A stretch of DNA of 23,580 nucleotides from a virus. The notes below the pieces were generated by a model, which saw nothing but the letters and a program-made list of their open reading frames with translations, made no database searches and had not been told where the DNA came from. Of the stretch, positions 855 to 21,700 are shown one piece after another. The stretch is taken from IMG/VR virus record IMGVR_UViG_3300012012_001593, positions 3,754 through 27,333 of that record; one strand, written 5' to 3'. Both the position numbers and the translations under genes were made by a program. Within the stretch, counting starts at the first letter, position 1, and each line of letters starts with the position of its first letter.

Positions 855-1019
855 TCACGCCAGCCCCCGGGCACGCAACCACTCCGACAGCGAGACGCCA
901 GCGGCGCGGGCCGCCGCGACCAGGCGATCCCGCTCCTCGGCGGTGCAACGAAGGCGCACCGTCACCGTGCGGAAGGGGATCGGGACGGCCACGCCGTCGA
1001 CGAGGCGGGCGCCAGTCAC
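855..1019 (-). CDS. Ribbon-helix-helix (Arc/CopG/MobC-like) small DNA-binding protein
   Basis: 54 aa from a GTG at 1019-1017, chosen because it overlaps the TGA of the upstream leftward gene (GTGA, 1016-1019). The pattern is a short beta strand (TVTVRLR, about 18-24), a helix starting TAEERDRL (27-39), a turn AAGVS and a second helix SLSEWLRARG (43-52). This is the usual ribbon-helix-helix layout found in Arc/CopG repressors and mobilisation accessory proteins, which bind palindromic DNA as dimers. A paralog lies at 19710-19886, with the same GTGA junction and the same C-terminal SEWLR-RGLA pattern. It ends 12 nt from the convergent scaffold gene. Inference: it may regulate its own operon through the palindromes at 1452-1474. 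Confidence 0.72.
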   Translation of the reverse strand: MTGARLVDGVAVPIPFRTVTVRLRCTAEERDRLVAAARAAGVSLSEWLRARGLA

Positions 1020-1402
1020 GCGACCGCCAGCGCGGCGGCGGCGGCGGCGCGGGCGGCGACTTGAGCATCGGCCCATGCTGCGGCCCACGCCGCGATTCGG
1101 TTCGCGCCGTGGTCCATGCTGGCGGCCCGCATCACGACGGCGCGGGCAGCGTCCCAGGCGGGACCGATCGAAACGTCGCAGGCGGCGCGCCATGCCGGGA
1201 GCCCGGCGGCACGTCCGACGGCGGCGCGGGCCGCGCCGTTCGAGGCGTCCACGGCGATCGCGCGAACCGCCGCCACCGACCCACGCGGGGCGCCGGTCCA
1301 TTCGCCATCACCGGCCGCGGCCCGGTCGGCGTCCCACGCCGAAACCCAGGCCGCGATCGAGTCGATGCTGCTGCTCTTGTACGATGCGGCGGTCGTCGCC
1401 AT
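1016..1402 (-). CDS. Unknown Ala/Trp-rich protein of an antisense cassette
   Basis: 128 aa. The ATG at 1402 has a well-placed GGAG 8 nt upstream; a GTG at 1432 is possible but has no good ribosome binding site. The protein is helical and dominated by Ala with regularly spaced Trp (AAW, AWDA, WRAA, AWDAARA, AAWAAAW), giving a heptad-like repeat, and ends in a poly-Ala run encoded by a GCG microsatellite near 1030-1055. No signal peptide or membrane segment is seen. It is translationally coupled to the ribbon-helix-helix gene and faces against the head genes. Its function is not recognised. Position and orientation resemble a moron, meaning an accessory gene expressed from its own promoter in a prophage. 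Confidence 0.6.
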   Translation of the reverse strand: MATTAASYKSSSIDSIAAWVSAWDADRAAAGDGEWTGAPRGSVAAVRAIAVDASNGAARAAVGRAAGLPAWRAACDVSIGPAWDAARAVVMRAASMDHGANRIAAWAAAWADAQVAARAAAAAALAVA

Positions 1403-1451
1403 GTTTGCTCCGGGGTGGCGTGCGTTGCTCACCCATACAGCATAGCACGAC

Positions 1452-1485
1452 GTAGCTACCGCGTGTAGCTACACCACAAAGAAAG
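1452..1485 (-). promoter_or_regulatory. Operator/promoter region of the left accessory cassette
   Basis: GTAGCTAC (1452-1459) and a perfect 12-bp palindrome GTGTAGCTACAC (1463-1474) are followed after 4 nt by AAGAAAG (1479-1485), which reads CTTTCTT in the direction of transcription. The element lies 61 nt upstream of the ATG at 1402. The same palindrome, 4-nt spacer and AAGAAAG box recur at 20511-20533 and 21131-21153 upstream of two other leftward operons. This is best read as a shared operator with promoter elements. The -35/-10 boxes cannot be placed with confidence. Confidence 0.65.
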
Positions 1486-1498
1486 CGGACGAGGTGGC

Positions 1499-5130: not shown

Positions 5131-5646
5131 ATGGCCGGCATCCGTAACGCCTTTGTCAAGATCGAGATCGGGGCCACGGGCCTCCCCACCACGCCGATCG
5201 CCGGGGGTGGGGCCGTCCCGATCAACGAGCTGATCGCGCTCGCCGTGGGCACCGGCGCCGGGCAGGTCAACCGGGCCTACATTGCGAACCGCTCGATCGG
5301 CGCGGCCGGCACCGAAGACCTGGACCTCTCCGGGACGGCGCTCCTCGACGTCAACGGCGACGCGGTCGCTTTGGACAACGTGAAGCTGATCTACGTCAAG
5401 AACACGAGCTCGAACGGCACCGGGTCCGTCAACCTGATGAACGCCACCGCGAACGGCGTCGGCAACGGCGCGAGCGGCTTCGTGACCGCCACCGGCGACA
5501 AGTGGAACATCCCGGCCGGCGGCGTCGGCCTCTGGTACAACCCCAACGGTTTCACGGTCACCGCGGCCACCGCGGACCTGATCACCGTCGCCGCGCCCGG
5601 CACCGCCGCGACCTACACCATCGTCATCCTCGGCGTCGACTCCTGA
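5131..5646 (+). CDS. Beta-rich neck/head structural protein
   Basis: 171 aa. The ATG at 5131 has GAGG 5-8 nt upstream and starts 7 nt after the previous stop. It is rich in Gly, Ala, Thr, Asn and Val with repeating strand patterns: DLDLSGTALLDVNGDAVAL (about 70-88), KLIYVKNTSSNGTGS (90-105), WNIPAGGVGLWYNP (130-143) and TAATYTIVILG at the end. It has almost no Cys and no membrane segment. The pattern is common in small phage structural proteins located among neck genes; a decoration role is equally possible. The stop overlaps the next start (TGATG, 5644-5648). Confidence 0.58.
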   Translation: MAGIRNAFVKIEIGATGLPTTPIAGGGAVPINELIALAVGTGAGQVNRAYIANRSIGAAGTEDLDLSGTALLDVNGDAVALDNVKLIYVKNTSSNGTGSVNLMNATANGVGNGASGFVTATGDKWNIPAGGVGLWYNPNGFTVTAATADLITVAAPGTAATYTIVILGVDS

Positions 5647-6149
5647 TGACGGCCTACCTCCCCAGCACCGTGGCCGAGGCTCTACGCGCCCGCGTCGAGC
5701 TTCTGCCCGTTCGCGCGGCCTACGCGCAGGACGCGACGGGCTGGGTGAGGTCGTCCTACATGCTGGTGCCGGAGTTCGAGCCCGACACGTCGGCCCACCT
5801 TCGGTTCTTCGTCGACGACCGCGCGCTGGTGCAGGGCGGCACCCCGCAGGTCTATACCAACGACTGCCCCGGCGTGACCGTGCGCGCCCCCGTGTCGGTG
5901 TCGTGGCTGATGCGGATGCGCCCGCTCTCCGACGGCGACGCCGATAACAACGTCGACGCCGTCACCGATTGGGACGCGGCATCCGTCGCCGCGTGCCACC
6001 TCGCCGGCTGGCTGCTCGACCCGACCTGGCACGACTACGACCTCGTCGCGCTCCAGCCCGCATTCCTCGACCGCCGGCCGATCCTCGGCGGTGACTGGCT
6101 CCAGTGTGAGCTTCGGCTCGCCGTCTCCTACACTCTCGACATCGGGTGA
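5646..6149 (+). CDS. Probable tail completion/terminator or neck protein
   Basis: 167 aa, translationally coupled to the previous gene. It starts with an amphipathic helix (AEALRARVELLPVRAAYAQ), continues with mixed strands (SYMLVPEFEP, HLRFFVDDRALVQ) and ends with a strand-rich part (DWLQCELRLAVSYTLDIG). Size, mixed fold and position immediately before the tail tube gene match tail terminator/completion proteins, which cap the tail at the neck. No diagnostic motif is visible, so the function is inferred from gene order. Confidence 0.5.
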   Translation: MTAYLPSTVAEALRARVELLPVRAAYAQDATGWVRSSYMLVPEFEPDTSAHLRFFVDDRALVQGGTPQVYTNDCPGVTVRAPVSVSWLMRMRPLSDGDADNNVDAVTDWDAASVAACHLAGWLLDPTWHDYDLVALQPAFLDRRPILGGDWLQCELRLAVSYTLDIG

Positions 6150-7737: not shown

Positions 7738-9308
7738 TGGCGACCGACACCTACACCCTCGAATACGTCGCGAAGATCGAGAAGCTGCAAGCGGAGCTCG
7801 CGAAGATCCCCGGGGCCACCGACCGCAGCGCGTTGGCCGCCGCGCAGCGTCTCGAATCGCGGCTCGACAAGGCCGGCAAGACCGCCGGCAAGGGGCTCCA
7901 GACCAACATCGGCGGGTCGCTGGCGTCGCTCGCGAAGGCGGGCGGGTTCGGCGGGCTCGTCGAGCAGGTCGGCCACCTCGGCGCCGGGCTGGGTGGGCTT
8001 GGTCCCGCCGCCGGGGTCGCGGCCGGCGGGCTCGCTGCCGTCGGCGTGGCCGCGGCGGCGATCAACGCCGAGGTCGGGCTGGTGAGCCTGCTCTACGACG
8101 CGGCGAAGGCGTCGGGCGAGCTCGACGGCGAGACGCAGGCGCTCGACACCGCGATGACCGACCTCCAAAAGTCGATTGGGAAGCAGGTCGCGCCTGAGTT
8201 CGAGACGCTGCTCCTCCTGCTCGTCGCGGGCACGTTCGCCACGCAGGACATCGCGACGGAGTTTGGCAAGGCCGCGACCGCCACCGTCGACTGGTACGAA
8301 GACCTCGGCATCCTTGGCAAGGCGTTCGCGAACTACGTCGCGCCTGCGCTGGCCGGCGTCGCCGCAAACCGCCAGTTCCGCGACGCTATCGAGGCGGGCA
8401 CGAAGGCCGAGGGGTCCTACCTCGCCCGCGCGAAGGAGGCGATCGGCGTCGCCGACGAAAAGAAGAAAAAGACCGACGAGGAGACTGGCGCGAAGAAGGC
8501 CCACACGACCGCAACCCGCGACCACACCACCGCCCTGGAGGCCGAGATCGCGGCGCTCCAGCAGCGGGACGAATGGATGGCGAAGGCCGTCGCGCTGGAC
8601 CAGATGGAGGCCGACATCCTTGCGGGGCTGACGCCGCAGATCGCTGCCAACTCCGAGGCGATCGCCGAGCAGCAGCAGTTGCGGGCCGACGAGGCGATGG
8701 CCCGCGCCCAGATGGTCGACGACATGCGGGCACAGACGGCGCAGACGATCGCCGATCGCCGCACCGAGCGCGACGTGTTCCTCTCGACCGGCGCCGACAT
8801 CGCGGGCGGGATTGGCCAGATGCTCGGGCTGCTTGCCGACCAGGAGGGTGTCAGCCGGAAGACAGCGAAGGCGCTCGTCATTGCGCAGAAGGCCGCCGGC
8901 ATCGCGCAGGTCGGGATCTCCACTGCCGTGGCGATCATGCAGGCCCTCGCGTCCTTCGGCCCCGCCGGCCCCTTCGTCGCCGCTGGCTACGCGGTCACCG
9001 GAGCCGCCCAGGCCGCCGTGATCGCGGCGACGCCGCTTCCGAAGTTCCACCAGGGCGGCACGATGCAGGGCGACGAGGGGATCGCCGTCGTCCGCCAGGG
9101 CGAGCGCGTGATGACCCAGCGCGCCGCGAAGGACTACGACCAGGGCCTCGGTGACCTCAACCGCGGGGCTGGGGCGGGCGGCGGTGGCGGCTCGACCCGC
9201 GTCTCCTTCGAGGGCCGCGACCTCGACGTCATGCTCGCCCGCGTGGTACGTCAGCACGGGGCGACGCGCCGCGAGCTTGACGGCCGCCGCGTCCAAGGGG
9301 CGTACTGA
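7737..9308 (+). CDS. Tape measure protein (short)
   Basis: 523 aa, coupled to its neighbours by TGATG on both sides. It has an N-terminal helix (YVAKIEKLQAELAKIPG), Gly/Ala-rich hydrophobic stretches at about 68-110, a charged coiled coil in the middle (about 245-345, including a KKKKTDEE patch and many Gln/Glu/Ala), and a hydrophobic helix pair at 380-430. The C-terminal FHQGG...DEGIAVVRQGERVM motif (about 437-460) is typical of tape measure proteins. It sets tail length and lies inside the tube. At the usual ~0.15 nm per residue the tail would be roughly 80 nm, short for a siphovirus. Confidence 0.85.
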   Translation: MATDTYTLEYVAKIEKLQAELAKIPGATDRSALAAAQRLESRLDKAGKTAGKGLQTNIGGSLASLAKAGGFGGLVEQVGHLGAGLGGLGPAAGVAAGGLAAVGVAAAAINAEVGLVSLLYDAAKASGELDGETQALDTAMTDLQKSIGKQVAPEFETLLLLLVAGTFATQDIATEFGKAATATVDWYEDLGILGKAFANYVAPALAGVAANRQFRDAIEAGTKAEGSYLARAKEAIGVADEKKKKTDEETGAKKAHTTATRDHTTALEAEIAALQQRDEWMAKAVALDQMEADILAGLTPQIAANSEAIAEQQQLRADEAMARAQMVDDMRAQTAQTIADRRTERDVFLSTGADIAGGIGQMLGLLADQEGVSRKTAKALVIAQKAAGIAQVGISTAVAIMQALASFGPAGPFVAAGYAVTGAAQAAVIAATPLPKFHQGGTMQGDEGIAVVRQGERVMTQRAAKDYDQGLGDLNRGAGAGGGGGSTRVSFEGRDLDVMLARVVRQHGATRRELDGRRVQGAY

Positions 9309-12300
9309 TGGCCAGCCGCTACACGCCCCCTGCCTACCACGCGATCGGCGTCTTCGACGAGCGGTTCGTGCCCGACGAAGCCGACACGTCGAGCAGCTAC
9401 AGCGAGTCGACCCCCCGGCCGGGCGTCGGCGCGCCGTCGACGACCTCGACCTACGCCAGCGTCCGGGCCTCGGGCGCGCAGTCGGTGGGGCTGACGGTCA
9501 CGACGCAGGCCCCCGGGACGTGGCGCGGGATGCCCGACGGCGCGCGCCCGTCGTGGCGGCTGACCTCGGAGGCCACGACGCAGGGGCGCGGGTGGCTCAC
9601 GCCGTCGGCGATGACCGGCGCGTGGCCGCTGGACGCCGGAGACTACGCCTTCGCCGACGCCGTCGTGGTGCCGTCGACCCAGGCGGTGATGATCCTGGCC
9701 AACAACCAGACCAACCTTGAGCTGGAGTGTTGGCGCTTCGACCCGAACAGCGGGCCGATCGGCGGCGCGGTGCTCATCCTGGCGAGCGCCCCGTCCCTCG
9801 GCGTGCCGGCGGGGTGCGTGCTGCCGGTGTCGGAGCGGCTGCTGTGCATCTTCGTCGACCAGCAGGCCGACGTCTACTACAGCGACGACGCCGGGGCGAC
9901 GTGGGCGCTCTACGCGTCGGACGTGCTCGACACCTCCCTCGGCGGCGGGACCACGGCCTCGCGCGCGCGGGCGCTCGTGTCGCCGACGGGCTCGATCGTG
10001 CTGTCTGTGCAGTACAGCGACGGAGCCGAGAAGGCGGTGCAGTACGTCTCCACCGACTACGGCGCATCCTTCCAGCGCGTCGCCGCCGGGTGGGCGTGCG
10101 TGTCGAGCGATGTCGTGATGCTGGCCGACGGGTCGGTCGGCCTCGTCGACGTCTCGGGCGGCAACCTCCGGTGGCGCCGGGTGGCGTCGATCCGCGACCG
10201 CCTCGACCTCGCGACGACGTCGACCGTCAACACCGTGGGCACCATCCTCGACGCCGGGGTGTGTGTCGATGCCGACGGCAGCGTGTACGCCGCATCGCTG
10301 GTCGGCTCGGCGTGGCGGCTCTACCGCACCGACGACGCCGGCGCCTCGTGGCGCGCCTTCGACCACGTCCTCCGGTCCAGCGGCAACACCCGCTCGCTCG
10401 GGGCGCTCGTGTGGGCGGCCGGGTCGATGATCATGGCGAGCGGCACGAACACCTCGACCCCCGACTACCCGCTGATGGCGTTCCGGTGGGGCGGGTGGAG
10501 CAACATCGACACGAACCGCAACGGGGTGACCGCGTCGGCGACGGACCTGTGGGCCACGGCGGTCGCGCCGTCCGACAGCATCGGCGACGCGGTCGCGATC
10601 GGATGGACCTACTGCTCGATCGTGACGCTGCCGACGTCGGAGGGCTGGACCAGCGGCGGCGGGGCTCCCGCGAGCGGCTACGTCTACCAGACGCCGGCCG
10701 ACAGCGACGCCCGCACCGTGCTGCTGATCGCGTCCCTCGACGTCACCGCGGGCGGCTCGACGGCGGCCGACGAGGCCGGGATCATCGTCCGCCTGCGCAA
10801 CGCGGCAGCGAACAGCACGCGGGGCGTGGCGATCCGGTGCTCGTCCACGCAGTTTGCGATCTACGACATCGGCGCGGCGGCGATTGAGGCGACCATCACG
10901 CCGACGTCGATGACGAACCTGGAGATCCTGATCGAGATCGACAACAGCGTGCTGCGCGTCGGCTACCGCAACGCCGGAGCGACTGCATGGACCCAGGCGT
11001 CCTACTCGCTGTCGACGATCGCCGGCTCACCCGCGGCGGTGGTCGGGTGGGGCGACAACGGGATCGCGGGGAGTAACTTCCGCCTCCTGACGTACTGCGC
11101 CAACTGGACCGCCACGGCGGCGAACGTCGGCGCTGGCACGCGCCCGCTGGCATCGCGGCCCATCTCGTCGATCCCGTACCCGCTGTATCGCCTCGCCTCG
11201 ACGGCCACCGCCGCCGCGGTGTTTCTCGTCGGCGGCGACGGCCCGACCGGCTACGCCGACTCGTGGGCCATCGCGACCGCGCCGGACTACCCGATCTCCG
11301 CCGTCGACCCGCGGGTGTCGCCGTCTCCGGATGTGGTGTGGCGCTCGACCGACACCACCGAGCAGACGATCGCGTGGATTCCGGCGACCTCCACGCGGTG
11401 GACGTCCTCGTCAGTGGCGCTCGTCATCCTGCGCGCCAACTTCGCGACCGCCTACCTGGAGTATTGGGACGGCGCCGCATGGCAGACGTCGGGCACCTGG
11501 TCGAGCGTGATCGGCTCGTCGCTGACGGCGGCGGTGTCGGGCGACTGGGTCACGCCCAACGGCGGCACGATCGCGCGCTACGTCCGCCGCGGCGAGCTCG
11601 TTGGCGGCACGCTGAATCGCAACGGCACTCTGCGCCGGATCCTCGCCAACACCGAGGGCGTGTGGGGCACCGACGCGACGACGCGCCGCCTCGAGGTGCA
11701 GACCGACGGCGTGGTGACGGCGGGCGGGACGACCAGCATCCAGGCCCCGGACGGCGTGCTTGTCGTCCACGGCCTCACGGCCTCGCGCGCTCGCTGGCGC
11801 GTGCGGATCCCGTCGCAGTCGACCGCCGAGAGCTACTTCGAGGCCGGCCACATTGGGATCTATTCGGTCGCCGTGCCGGGCGCGGCCTTCGCGTGGGGCT
11901 GGACGGACGAGAGCCGGCAGAACGTCAGCGAGGCCCGCGACCGCTACGGGACCGCGTACCGCCGCGAGGAGGGGCCGCTACAGCGTATCTTCGCGATGGC
12001 GTGGACGGACGGCCAGGCGCAAGGCCCGCTCCGCACCGAAGGCGCCGCCGCCGCGGTGTCCTACGTCTCCGTCGACGGCACCAACGCGGTCGGCGTGCGG
12101 CGTGACGTGCCGTGGCTGCTCCGCGGGATGCTCGAGGAGGCGGCCGGCGGGACGCTGCCGGTGGTCGGGCTCGCGAACCTCACCGCGGACGTGTCGTCGC
12201 AGATGATCACCGACCCCTCCGTCTGGGTCGTCGGCTACTGGACGGGCTCGGTCGCGACCGCGCACGTGTCCGGCATCCTCGGGGACGACGAGGTTACGCG

Positions 12301-19709: not shown

Positions 19710-19886
19710 TCAGGGCGCGAGCCCACGCACGCGCAGCCACTCCGACAGCGTGACGCCCGCGGCCCGCGCGTTGGCGGCGAGGGTGGCGCGCTCGGCGGCG
19801 GTGACGCGGACCGCGATGACGTTGTCGCGGGGCTCGTCGGCGCGCCAGCGGCCGTCGGGGGTGCGGGTGGGCGGTGTCGTGGTCAC
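19710..19886 (-). CDS. Ribbon-helix-helix protein, paralog of the 855-1019 gene
   Basis: 58 aa from a GTG at 19886 that overlaps the upstream TGA (GTGA). A polar Thr/Pro/Arg N-terminus is followed by the strand NVIAVRV (22-28), helix TAAERATLAANARAAG (29-44) and VTLSEWLRVRG (45-55), ending LAP. The C-terminal 25 residues match the left paralog almost exactly (xAARAAGV-S/T-LSEWLR-x-RGLA), and the genes share the 14-nt block CCACTCCGACAGCG at 879-892 and 19737-19750. It is likely a dimeric DNA-binding protein, perhaps controlling the shared palindromes. Confidence 0.72.
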   Translation of the reverse strand: MTTTPPTRTPDGRWRADEPRDNVIAVRVTAAERATLAANARAAGVTLSEWLRVRGLAP

Positions 19887-20152
19887 GCGGACACCGCGGC
19901 GGCGAGCAGCAGGTCGAGCGCGGCGCGGTGGTGGCGCGCGACGTCGTCGAGGTAGTCGCCGTCCTCGTCGGCGATGCTGGCGGCCCCCATCCGGCGGGCC
20001 TCCGACTCGGCGCCGCCGAGCCACTCGTCGAGGCTGGGGCGGTGGGCGATGAGGCCGAACTCCTCGACGACGTTGGCGGGGCTGCGGTCGCCGAGCACGG
20101 TGAGCCAGTAGGCGGCGAAGTCAAGCGGGGTGGCGGTCGGGGCGGTGGTCAT
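19883..20152 (-). CDS. Small acidic protein coupled to a ribbon-helix-helix gene
   Basis: 89 aa. The ATG at 20152 has GGAGG 6-7 nt upstream inside the R2 repeat. After the MTTA start the sequence has FAAYWLTVLGDRSP, a FGLIAHRPSLDEWLGGAESEARRMG helix and a DEDGDYLDDVARHHRAALDLLLA helix. It is soluble and acidic. No family recognised. The first four codons (MTTA) belong to the duplicated leader, not to homology of the proteins. Confidence 0.58.
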   Translation of the reverse strand: MTTAPTATPLDFAAYWLTVLGDRSPANVVEEFGLIAHRPSLDEWLGGAESEARRMGAASIADEDGDYLDDVARHHRAALDLLLAAAVSA

Positions 20153-20225
20153 CGGTGCCTCCTACGCCCGAAGCCCGCCACCGTGACGTGAGCGGGCGGG
20201 GCGGCGGGCGCTGGGGCGCTAGGCG
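20141..20225 (-). repeat. R2 intergenic hairpin repeat, copy A
   Basis: Matches 20759-20839 with one substitution and one 4-nt insertion. It covers the stop of the gene at 20219, the gap, the GGAGG site and the first four codons of the next gene. In the leftward mRNA CCCGCCGCC (from 20200-20208) and GGTGGCGGG (from 20174-20182) form a 9-bp stem (one G-U) around a loop that contains CACGTCAC. The hairpin may protect or cut the mRNA or attenuate transcription; no T-run is seen. Confidence 0.75.
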
Positions 20226-20455
20226 AGGGCCGCGAGGGCTTCCGTCAGCGTGGCGGCCGGGGTGCCGTACCAGCGGCCAAACTCGCCGCCGTTCGGGCAG
20301 GTGGGGCCGTAGCAGAGGTGGGCGACGGTGCGGCTCGGGGTGACAACCACGTTGACCTCGCGGCCGGCCTGGAATGCCTGCACCGCGATGTGGTCCCAGA
20401 AGGTGCGGTAGGAAACGGTGGCGAGGATGGCGGCGAGGTCGGCGGTGATGGTCAT
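20219..20455 (-). CDS. Small accessory protein (first gene of right operon 2)
   Basis: 78 aa. The ATG at 20455 has GGAG 6 nt upstream; an in-frame ATG at 20485 lacks a good site. After MTITA, an amphipathic helix (DLAAILATVSYRTFWDHIAV) leads into FQAGREVNVVVTPSRT, then a CYGPTCPNGGEFGRWYG segment with a CxxxxC pair, ending in a helix. It is soluble. Function unknown. It follows the shared leader repeat R1. Confidence 0.58.
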   Translation of the reverse strand: MTITADLAAILATVSYRTFWDHIAVQAFQAGREVNVVVTPSRTVAHLCYGPTCPNGGEFGRWYGTPAATLTEALAALA

Positions 20456-20546
20456 CGGAGGCTCCGGGGTGGTTGGTGACCCCATCCATGTAATACACCG
20501 TCCCCCGACCGTGTACCTACAGCGCGAAGAAAGTTGAAGATACTTC
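20451..20546 (-). repeat. R1 leader repeat, copy A
   Basis: Aligns without gaps to 21071-21166 (offset 620), 86 of 96 positions identical; the differences cluster at 20493-20497 and 20522-20526. It contains the ribosome site, a leader with CCCCATCCATGTAATAC and the operator. The stop codon of the upstream gene (20546) abuts its far end. Confidence 0.8.
20511..20533 (-). promoter_or_regulatory. Operator/promoter element of right operon 2
   Basis: GTGTACCTACAG (20511-20522), 4 nt, AAGAAAG (20527-20533), 56 nt before the ATG at 20455. GAAG-ATA-CTTC (20536-20546) flanks it. A TATTAC on the leftward strand in the leader (around 20491-20496) is a possible -10, but no clear -35 is at 17 nt. Confidence 0.6.
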
Positions 20547-20770
20547 TACGACCGCGCGCCCGACGCGGTCGTAGGCGACGACGCGCGAAGGTCGGCGAGG
20601 AGCAGCGCGCCGAGGGCGTCGTACACCGGGCCGCGCACCGGGCCGGCCTTCGCGTGGGCGGCGCTGTTGCGCGCCGAGAAGGTGTCGTGGTCGATGGTGC
20701 CGGCGTAGTAGGCGTCCACGTTGGCGCGGATCTCGGCGTGGATGCTGGCGGCGGTCTGGGCGGTGGTCAT
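20546..20770 (-). CDS. Small accessory protein (second gene of right operon 1)
   Basis: 74 aa. The ATG at 20770 follows GGAGG in the R2 copy B leader. After MTTA the protein is helical: IHAEIRANVDAYYAGTIDHD, TFSARNSAAHAKAG and VYDALGALLLADLRA. Soluble, no Cys. The AxVDAYYAGTIDHDTF pattern looks like a small helical domain but is not a family I can name. Different from the 89-aa protein at the equivalent place in operon 2. Confidence 0.58.
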   Translation of the reverse strand: MTTAQTAASIHAEIRANVDAYYAGTIDHDTFSARNSAAHAKAGPVRGPVYDALGALLLADLRASSPTTASGARS

Positions 20771-20839
20771 CGGTGCCTCCTACGCCCGAAGCCCGCCACC
20801 GTGACGTGAGCGGGGCGGCGGGCGCCGGGGCGCTAGGCG
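20759..20839 (-). repeat. R2 intergenic hairpin repeat, copy B
   Basis: Second copy of the element at 20141-20225, 4 nt shorter. Stem arms map to 20792-20800 and 20814-20822. The same stop-hairpin-GGAGG-ATG-MTTA arrangement is kept, and so is the CACGTCAC loop. Confidence 0.75.
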
Positions 20840-21075
20840 CGCTGCGGGGCGGGCGACCCGTCGGAGAAGGTGCGCTCGTAGGTGCGAAACAGGCGCCCGC
20901 CGACGCGGTCCTCGGTAACGAGGCGGTCGGGGCCAGCAAGGTGCCAGCGGAGCCCGTCGCCGCGGTCGGCGGCGATGAAGGAGGCATCCACGAAGGCGCC
21001 GCCGTGGCGGCCGACGAGGCAGGTGTCGCCGCTGTTGCGGGGCGTCGAGGTCGGGACGGTGTGGGCGGTGGTCAT
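20833..21075 (-). CDS. Small accessory protein (first gene of right operon 1)
   Basis: 80 aa. The ATG at 21075 has GGAG 6-7 nt upstream. After MTTAHT the sequence is strand-rich: TCLVGRHGGAFVDASFIAA, LRWHLAGPDRLVTEDR, RLFRTYERTFSDG. Soluble and basic. It fills the position of the 78-aa protein in operon 2 but shows no clear similarity to it. Function unknown. Confidence 0.58.
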   Translation of the reverse strand: MTTAHTVPTSTPRNSGDTCLVGRHGGAFVDASFIAADRGDGLRWHLAGPDRLVTEDRVGGRLFRTYERTFSDGSPAPQRA

Positions 21076-21166
21076 CCGAGGCTCCGGGGTGGTTGGTGAC
21101 CCCATCCATGTAATACGCCGTCGGTCTACCGTGTACCTACACGGCAAAGAAAGTTGAAGGTACTTC
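21071..21166 (-). repeat. R1 leader repeat, copy B
   Basis: Second copy of 20451-20546. The identity drops sharply after TACTTC at 21161-21166. Confidence 0.8.
21131..21153 (-). promoter_or_regulatory. Operator/promoter element of right operon 1
   Basis: GTGTACCTACAC (21131-21142) has GTGTA/TACAC half-sites around 2 nt, then 4 nt, then AAGAAAG (21147-21153), 56 nt before the ATG at 21075. GAAG-GTA-CTTC follows at 21156-21166. Same arrangement as the other two sites. Confidence 0.62.
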
Positions 21167-21397
21167 GCCAGCCCGCCTACGACGCGGCTTTACCGCGCCG
21201 CGCTCCCGTTGTGGCAGCACCGCGCCGAGGTGTCACGACGCCACGACCTGGGATCAGATCCCAGCCGCTGGGATCTCGGGCCTCCTCTGGCGGGATCACG
21301 ACTCGGCAACCGGCGGCCCGATCGTGGTGCTACGCCGAGTTCTCGGACGTCCGGACCCCCGAAAGTTCTACTACCTGTACTACTGACGAGCCCGTCG
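21167..21397. other. Gene-free gap with GGGATC repeats; candidate attachment or recombinase-binding region
   Basis: No gene is seen. A 17-nt perfect inverted repeat CTGGGATC-A-GATCCCAG (21248-21264) is followed by TGGGATCTC (21269-21277) and CGGGATCACG (21291-21300). The pattern continues just inside the adjoining gene with CGGGATCTC (21401-21409), GTGATCCCG (21417-21425) and GTGATCCCA (21429-21437). CGGACGTCCG (21344-21353) is another perfect palindrome. Repeated short sites near an integrase operon suggest arm-type or attachment sites; a repressor operator is an alternative. Confidence 0.42.
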
Positions 21398-21700
21398 TCA
21401 CGGGATCTCCGGGGCGGTGATCCCGGACGTGATCCCAGCCCCCAATGGCGCCGCGAAAAAAGCCACCTTCTCCTCCATGTCGCGCTTCGCCTCCTCTGCC
21501 CTGAAGTATCGGTGCCCCGCGTTGATCAGCGTCGCTCCGTCGCAGGTGAGGCTGGCCTTGTACTCGCAGGGCCATGCGTCCAGGAAGTCGACGGCGACGA
21601 TCCGCGCCGTAAATGGGCCGTCCACGCCGTCGTAACCGACCTCGATACGCTGGCCCCCGTTCATGGGCGCCTGACGGCCCCACCGCGTCGTCCACCTCAT
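21398..21700 (-). CDS. Unknown protein at the end of the integrase operon
   Basis: 100 aa from an ATG that shares one base with the integrase stop (TGATG, 21702-21698), with GAGGGG just upstream. N-terminus basic and Trp-containing (RWTTRWGRQAP); then strands QRIEVGYDG, TARIVAVDFLDAWPCEYKAS and LTCDGATLINAGHRYF; then a charged helix RAEEAKRDMEEKVAFFAA. Two Cys (near 45 and 53). Coding of the end carries GGGATC motifs. No family known. Confidence 0.58.
   Translation of the reverse strand: MRWTTRWGRQAPMNGGQRIEVGYDGVDGPFTARIVAVDFLDAWPCEYKASLTCDGATLINAGHRYFRAEEAKRDMEEKVAFFAAPLGAGITSGITAPEIP

What the first reader, a model, noticed from the sequence alone, without database searches (positions are those of the whole stretch)
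20141..21166. Cassette array: conserved regulatory joints with unrelated genes between them
Two operons lie in tandem as R1-gene-R2-gene. R1 copies (20451-20546 and 21071-21166) match 86/96 without gaps; R2 copies (20141-20225 and 20759-20839) differ by one base and a 4-nt gap. The repeats cover leaders, stop codons, ribosome sites and the first MTTA codons. The four coding sequences between them look mutually unrelated. Conservation of joints above genes suggests that coding sequences are swapped through recombination at the joints, a modular accessory-gene site in the phage. It could also be a duplication followed by fast divergence.
Basis: partly seen in the sequence, partly recalled or inferred. 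Interest (0 to 1): 0.68.

Follow-up and report, generated by a model that had tools for sequence, protein, structure and literature searches.

The report
Phage promoter joints with swapped genes
In an uncharacterised temperate phage, the same regulatory stretch stands in front of at least three unrelated sets of small genes, which suggests that the virus keeps the control switch and exchanges the accessory genes behind it, as a few other phages are known to do.

Summary
On the minus strand, R1 (86/96 identical) and R2 (80/81 plus a 4-nt gap) alternate with four small genes (here A, B, C, D) that show no detectable relatedness as protein or DNA. R2 at 99% beside zero coding similarity rules out plain duplication with coding drift, so genes were replaced between the joints.

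It heads another unrelated gene (F) inside the structural operon, about 19 kb away. All three R1 copies keep a TGTAGSTACA dyad, a 17-nt promoter-like spacing and a leader ending in CCACCCCGGAGC; these blocks occur nowhere else in the 38.9-kb record. Two R1-headed units end in related ribbon-helix-helix genes (E, G), the only two in the phage.

Best reading: R1 is a shared promoter/operator for accessory (moron) genes. E/G are probable autoregulators, an arrangement like anti-CRISPR acr-aca operons, though no gene function was shown. The phage's RecT-like protein could drive exchange at the joints.

Active cassette exchange is inferred: no relative carrying R1 or R2 was found. Closest precedents are cluster K SAS/ESAS, T4 PeSLs and SIRV2 early promoters. 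New variant of a known kind.

The parts
21071..21166 (-). R1a: promoter-like region, operator-like dyad, leader with GGAG ribosome site, start codon of gene A. Inferred -35 TACACG 21135-21130, 17-nt spacer, inferred -10 TACATG 21112-21107; dyad TGTAGGTACA 21141-21132
   Evidence: promoter boxes are inferred, the consensus scan found none
20833..21075 (-). gene A, 80 aa, MTTAHTV..., orphan
   Evidence: no family hit (phrogs only E 0.04), no phage hit
20759..20839 (-). R2a: stop of A, GC-rich foldable linker, AGGAGG ribosome site, first codons of B
20546..20770 (-). gene B, 74 aa, MTTAQTA..., orphan; its last codons lie in a 12-bp hairpin (20574-20546) directly before R1b
   Evidence: no phage hit
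20451..20546 (-). R1b: as R1a. TACACG 20515-20510, 17 nt, TACATG 20492-20487; dyad TGTAGGTACA 20521-20512
20219..20455 (-). gene C, 78 aa, MTITADL..., orphan
20141..20225 (-). R2b: as R2a with a 4-nt longer GC tract
19883..20152 (-). gene D, 89 aa, MTTAPTA..., orphan
19710..19886 (-). gene E, 58 aa, ribbon-helix-helix (PF21983 NikA-like); its GTG overlaps the TGA stop of D (GTGA 19886-19883)
   Evidence: Pfam E 2.8e-9, 37.4 bits, cut-off 27; sequence
1400..1489 (-). R1c: third, diverged R1 copy inside the structural operon. TACACG 1467-1462, 17 nt, TATGCT 1444-1439; dyad TGTAGCTACA 1473-1464; leader ends CCACCCCGGAGC
   Evidence: profile of R1a+R1b only gives E 8.4e-6, 20.7 bits; best in 20 shuffled phages 8.2 bits
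1016..1402 (-). gene F, 128 aa, Ala-rich, orphan, headed by R1c
855..1019 (-). gene G, 54 aa, ribbon-helix-helix paralogue of E (67% over 36 aa); its GTG overlaps the TGA stop of F (GTGA 1019-1016)
   Evidence: Pfam E 9e-11; E and G are the only PF21983 matches in the record

Best explanation
R1 is a portable promoter/operator/leader that heads at least three accessory (moron) transcription units of one temperate phage: R1a-A-R2-B, R1b-C-R2-D-E and R1c-F-G. R2 is a stop-to-start linker that couples the second gene of the two array units. The regulatory joints are kept by selection because they answer to the same regulator, while the genes between them have been replaced. Replacement most likely happened by homologous exchange through the 80-100 nt joints, with the phage's own RecT-like annealing protein able to promote it. 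The palindrome TGTAGSTACA over the inferred -35 is most likely the operator, and the ribbon-helix-helix proteins E and G, last in two of the three units, are the likeliest to bind it as autorepressors, as MobC does on plasmid RA3 and Aca proteins do in anti-CRISPR operons. Shown: the joints, their exclusivity, the unrelated genes, the third copy, the E/G homology and the RecT-like gene. Inferred: promoter boxes, operator function, E/G binding, and the exchange itself.
For: R1 86/96 and R2 80/81 against no similarity of the enclosed genes. R1c found with a profile of R1a+R1b alone, E 8.4e-6, above 20 shuffled controls. TGTAGSTACA: all matches lie in the three R1 copies, 0 expected by chance in the window, none in L004 or L003. 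CTTTCTTYG and CCACCCCGGAGC each occur exactly three times in the record, all in R1. Half of the R1a/R1b differences fall in the 17-nt spacer (5 of 10, Fisher p 0.014), and the 17-nt spacing is kept in R1c although the spacer sequence differs. R1 is a local GC minimum, 0.55 against 0.72. E and G are the only two PF21983 proteins in the phage, both end R1-headed units, and both overlap the preceding gene by GTGA. The unit R1c-F-G runs against the structural operon between a scaffold-like and a capsid-like gene, as morons do. RecT-like protein in the same phage (phrog_561 E 2.9e-33; PF03837); such recombinases make mosaics between diverged temperate phages (PMC3945230). Precedents: RHH MobC binds a palindrome in its own promoter (PMC4175270); Aca sites are inverted repeats inside core promoters (PMC9410906).
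Against: No relative with R1 or R2 and other genes was found, so exchange was not observed. The sigma-70 scan found no promoter above threshold, and the boxes are weak matches. The array's first unit (A-B) carries no E/G-like gene. The R1 leader folds no better than shuffles. Host and expression are unknown. All comparisons rest on one metagenomic phage record.
Confidence: 0.6

Rival explanations
1. One tandem duplication of a two-gene unit, after which the coding sequences simply diverged fast while the regulatory joints stayed.
For: The order R1-x-R2-y is repeated at a 618-620 nt period. A faint similarity continues about 20 nt upstream of R1 and into the first codons of A and C.
Against: R2 differs by 1 in 81, yet A/C and B/D show no protein or DNA similarity against shuffled or codon-shuffled controls. 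Drift cannot plausibly erase coding similarity in both pairs at that age. R1c heads a third unrelated gene elsewhere.
Confidence: 0.1
2. Duplication of the unit, then a single illegitimate replacement in each interval. The joints are passive leftovers, not exchange points.
For: Needs no related donors. R1 and R2 have diverged to different degrees (10/96 against 1/81, Fisher p 0.012), so their histories may differ.
Against: Replacement ends exactly at the gene edges in all intervals, and R1c-F-G needs a further independent event with the same boundary.
Confidence: 0.22
3. The units are toxin-antitoxin or addiction modules: D/F toxins with RHH antitoxins E/G, autoregulated at the R1 dyad.
For: E and G are RHH proteins; distant matches to MazE7 (PDB 6a6x, E 0.005) and to RelB (E 0.008 for E and 0.044 for G, below cut-off). 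They overlap the upstream gene.
Against: D and F match no toxin or defence family and are not related to each other. A-B has no RHH partner. The Pfam match is to the NikA/MobC branch.
Confidence: 0.12
4. R1 is itself a small mobile promoter element that copies itself in front of genes, with no gene exchange.
For: Three dispersed copies at two sites about 19 kb apart.
Against: No terminal repeats or target duplications were noticed (not searched systematically); the boundaries coincide with stop and start codons; and R2, which lies inside the operon, behaves the same way. Not tested against transposon families.
Confidence: 0.06

Closest known systems
SAS/ESAS of cluster K mycobacteriophages (Pope et al. 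2011, PMC3203893)
   Same: Conserved repeats at the start codons of many unrelated non-structural genes; ESAS adds an inverted repeat thought to bind a protein; includes the ribosome site.
   Different: SAS is a 13-bp GGGATAGGAGCCC sequence in 11-19 copies and ESAS is a pair of 17-bp repeats; here R1 is about 95 bp in three copies with another dyad and an inferred promoter, and R2 is a second, intra-operon joint.
T4-type PeSL mobile regulatory cassettes (Arbiol et al. 2010; Comeau et al. 2014; originals not held, known from PMC4503421 and own knowledge)
   Same: Repeated promoter-bearing intergenic cassettes that mediate shuffling of small early genes.
   Different: PeSLs join an early promoter to a terminator stem-loop in large lytic phages; here no terminator with a U-run, a small temperate phage, and shuffling not observed between genomes.
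Shared early regulatory sequence of archaeal virus anti-defence genes (SIRV2, PMC11065993)
   Same: One highly conserved regulatory sequence before many small unrelated genes, at least one of them a DNA-binding regulator.
   Different: Archaeal TATA/BRE promoters before single genes; function proven there for some genes, none here.
acr-aca operons (PMC9410906, PMC7648647)
   Same: Small unrelated genes followed by a conserved DNA-binding gene; inverted repeat within the inferred core promoter; different genes beside the same regulator.
   Different: The Aca families described there are HTH proteins (PMC9410906, PMC7648647), whereas E/G are RHH; no acr homologue and no anti-CRISPR activity shown.

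Membership tests
Mobile regulatory cassette / start-associated repeat (PeSL, SAS/ESAS type) | Near-identical regulatory sequence before unrelated genes in one genome | tested here: met
   R1 three copies, R2 two copies, genes unrelated
Mobile regulatory cassette / start-associated repeat (PeSL, SAS/ESAS type) | Same cassette with different genes in related phages | tested here: inconclusive
   No relative with R1/R2 in IMG/VR, GTDB genomes or phage records
Mobile regulatory cassette / start-associated repeat (PeSL, SAS/ESAS type) | SAS consensus GGGATAGGAGCCC, or promoter plus terminator stem-loop (PeSL) | tested here: not met
   R1/R2 sequences differ from the SAS consensus; terminator scan finds none
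acr-aca operon | Conserved small DNA-binding gene downstream of unrelated small genes | tested here: met
   E after C-D, G after F; E/G homologous, D/F not
acr-aca operon | Inverted repeat within the core promoter | tested here: inconclusive
   Dyad present in 3/3 R1 copies, but the promoter itself is inferred
acr-aca operon | Regulator belongs to a known HTH Aca family | tested here: not met
   E/G are ribbon-helix-helix, PF21983
acr-aca operon | Upstream gene inhibits CRISPR-Cas | not testable with these tools
   needs experiment; no family hits
Moron | Autonomous unit, own promoter, inserted between conserved phage genes | tested here: inconclusive
   R1c-F-G opposes the structural operon between a scaffold-like and a capsid-like gene; no relative without it was available
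Type II toxin-antitoxin module | Recognisable toxin next to an RHH antitoxin | tested here: not met
   D and F match no toxin family

The most novel reading that the evidence does not exclude
The three R1 units form an anti-defence regulon of an acr-aca type whose regulator is a ribbon-helix-helix protein (E/G) rather than an HTH Aca. A, B, C, D and F would then be new anti-defence proteins, exchanged as cassettes at R1 and R2 joints.
Probability: 0.2. Interest if true: 0.7.

Novelty: new variant of a known kind. Interest (0 to 1): 0.45.

Why it matters
A regulatory sequence that stays fixed while genes change is a handle for finding accessory phage genes that have no homologues. It worked in archaeal viruses for anti-defence genes. 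Here the handle (R1, R2, and an RHH gene at the unit's end) is defined precisely, so the exchange idea and the function of five orphan genes become testable in this otherwise isolated phage group.

Tried and rejected
Homology of A/C and B/D: rejected. D/F similarity at DNA level (2 of 300 shuffles) looked suggestive but vanished at protein level and was dropped. A/D and D/E DNA hits were explained by a GC-rich match and by overlap of the compared stretches. Fold comparison of A and C: single-sequence AlphaFold2 models too poor (pLDDT 42 and 49), so no fold search was run. Rfam: nothing. PADLOC: nothing. Relatives through capsid-like protein, integrase, TerL and the E/G profile in IMG/VR: none useful; the one E/G hit (L007, 47% over 34 aa) shares no other gene and no R1/R2. 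The integrase profile in GTDB genomes gave only distant integrases (about 21-40% identity), and none of the fetched loci holds R1 or R2. TerL in 396 genomes sampled from the phylum of a Mycolicibacter genome and 301 from the phylum of a Chloroflexi genome: none and one marginal hit. R2 RNA fold: z about -2 in both copies, but two near-identical copies carry no independent evidence. R1 leader fold: no better than chance.

Full report
What was checked. The window lies in a 38,921-base virus record. The finding is on its minus strand. R1 and R2 are present at the stated coordinates with the stated identities. Read 5' to 3' on the minus strand the order is R1a, gene A (80 aa), R2a, gene B (74 aa), R1b, gene C (78 aa), R2b, gene D (89 aa), and then gene E (58 aa), whose GTG start overlaps the stop of D. 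The joints start at a stop codon and end a few codons into the next gene. In A, B and D the first codons are identical (ATGACCACCGCC); C differs (ATGACCATCACC).

Are the genes related? Protein scores of all pairs, with the shared first codons removed, fall within shuffled controls. DNA of A against C and B against D does not beat codon-shuffled controls, and neither do the nine frame pairings beyond one 10/200 among 18 tests. All four genes have strong coding periodicity (third-position GC 0.94-0.98), so they are genes and not decayed copies. R2 is 99% identical while its neighbours share nothing. Plain duplication followed by coding drift therefore does not work; at least one gene of each pair was replaced.

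A third R1. A profile built from R1a and R1b alone finds one more place in the record, window 1489-1407 minus, E 8.4e-6 and 20.7 bits; the best hit in 20 shuffled versions is 8.2 bits. This R1c shares CTTTCTTTG, the palindrome GTGTAG(G/C)TACAC and the leader end CCACCCCGGAGC with the others. These blocks occur exactly three times in the record, and TGTAGSTACA matches only within R1 copies. R1c heads gene F (128 aa, orphan) and gene G, on the strand opposite to the surrounding structural genes, between a scaffold-like gene (165-842) and a capsid-like gene (from 1683). That is the layout of a moron, though no relative without the insert was available to prove it.

E and G. Both are ribbon-helix-helix proteins of PF21983, 67% identical over 36 residues, the only two in the record, each last in an R1-headed unit, each overlapping the preceding gene by GTGA. 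The preceding genes D and F are not related.

Reading R1. Aligning the three copies gives TACACG, 17 nt, then TACATG (a, b) or TATGCT (c) as a box pair kept at promoter spacing in all of them. The 17-nt spacer holds 5 of the 10 differences between R1a and R1b (Fisher p 0.014), and R1c keeps its length with another sequence. R1 is a GC trough (0.55 in a 0.72 phage). The consensus scan calls no promoter, so the boxes are an inference. The dyad overlaps the inferred -35. MobC of plasmid RA3, an RHH protein, represses its own operon by binding a palindrome between -35 and -10 (PMC4175270), and Aca proteins bind inverted repeats in the core promoters of the anti-CRISPR operons that they end (PMC9410906). 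By analogy E and G are the best candidates for R1-binding autorepressors. This was not tested.

How genes could be exchanged. The phage encodes a RecT-like protein (phrog_561 E 2.9e-33; PF03837). Rad52-like recombinases, RecT among them, generate mosaics between temperate phages and prophages by homology that tolerates divergence (PMC3945230). Joints of 80-100 nt should be suitable substrates. R1 and R2 have diverged to different extents (10/96 against 1/81, p 0.012), which fits separate histories better than one duplication, though different constraint would do the same.

What could not be shown. No related phage was found: exact and degenerate R1/R2 patterns gave no hit in IMG/VR, an R1 core pattern none in GTDB genomes, blastn of the array none in phage records; A to E have no tblastn hit in phages; the capsid-like protein, TerL and integrase gave no close relative. 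Exchange is thus inferred from one genome.

Comparison with known systems. Cluster K mycobacteriophages carry start-associated sequences before unrelated genes, half with an added inverted repeat (PMC3203893). T4-type phages have PeSL cassettes reported to mediate gene shuffling (cited in PMC4503421). SIRV2 and other archaeal viruses share one regulatory sequence before unrelated small genes, several proven anti-defence (PMC11065993). The present case works like these but is not a member of SAS (other sequence) or PeSL (no terminator found). It adds a two-level layout (promoter joint plus intra-operon joint) and an RHH gene in place of the HTH of Aca proteins. I rate it a new variant of a known kind, interest 0.45.

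Noticed in passing
window 21167-21400: Noncoding stretch next to the integrase side of the array with clustered GGGATC half-sites and perfect dyads (CTGGGATC-A-GATCCCAG; AGATCCCAGC-C-GCTGGGATCT). Candidate attP region with arm-type sites.
   Followed up: partly
window 20546-20574 (minus): 12-bp hairpin formed by the last codons of gene B directly before R1b, without a U-run; possible insulator between the two operons.
   Followed up: no
L004 2491-3438 (minus): RecT-like ssDNA annealing protein, possible agent of exchange.
   Followed up: partly
L004 5138-5437 (minus) and 5527-5787 (plus): Divergent pair of HTH regulators, repressor/Cro-like, with a GGGGT-ACGCTC-ACCCC dyad between them.
   Followed up: partly
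L004 8641-8808: Tandem repeat of about 97 nt encoding a repeated KGQPRASEGPA stretch in the 419-aa ORF at 8397-9656.
   Followed up: no
window 23047 to L004 about 680 (minus): ORF with the SGGKDS motif of PAPS-reductase-like enzymes, running across the window's right end.
   Followed up: no
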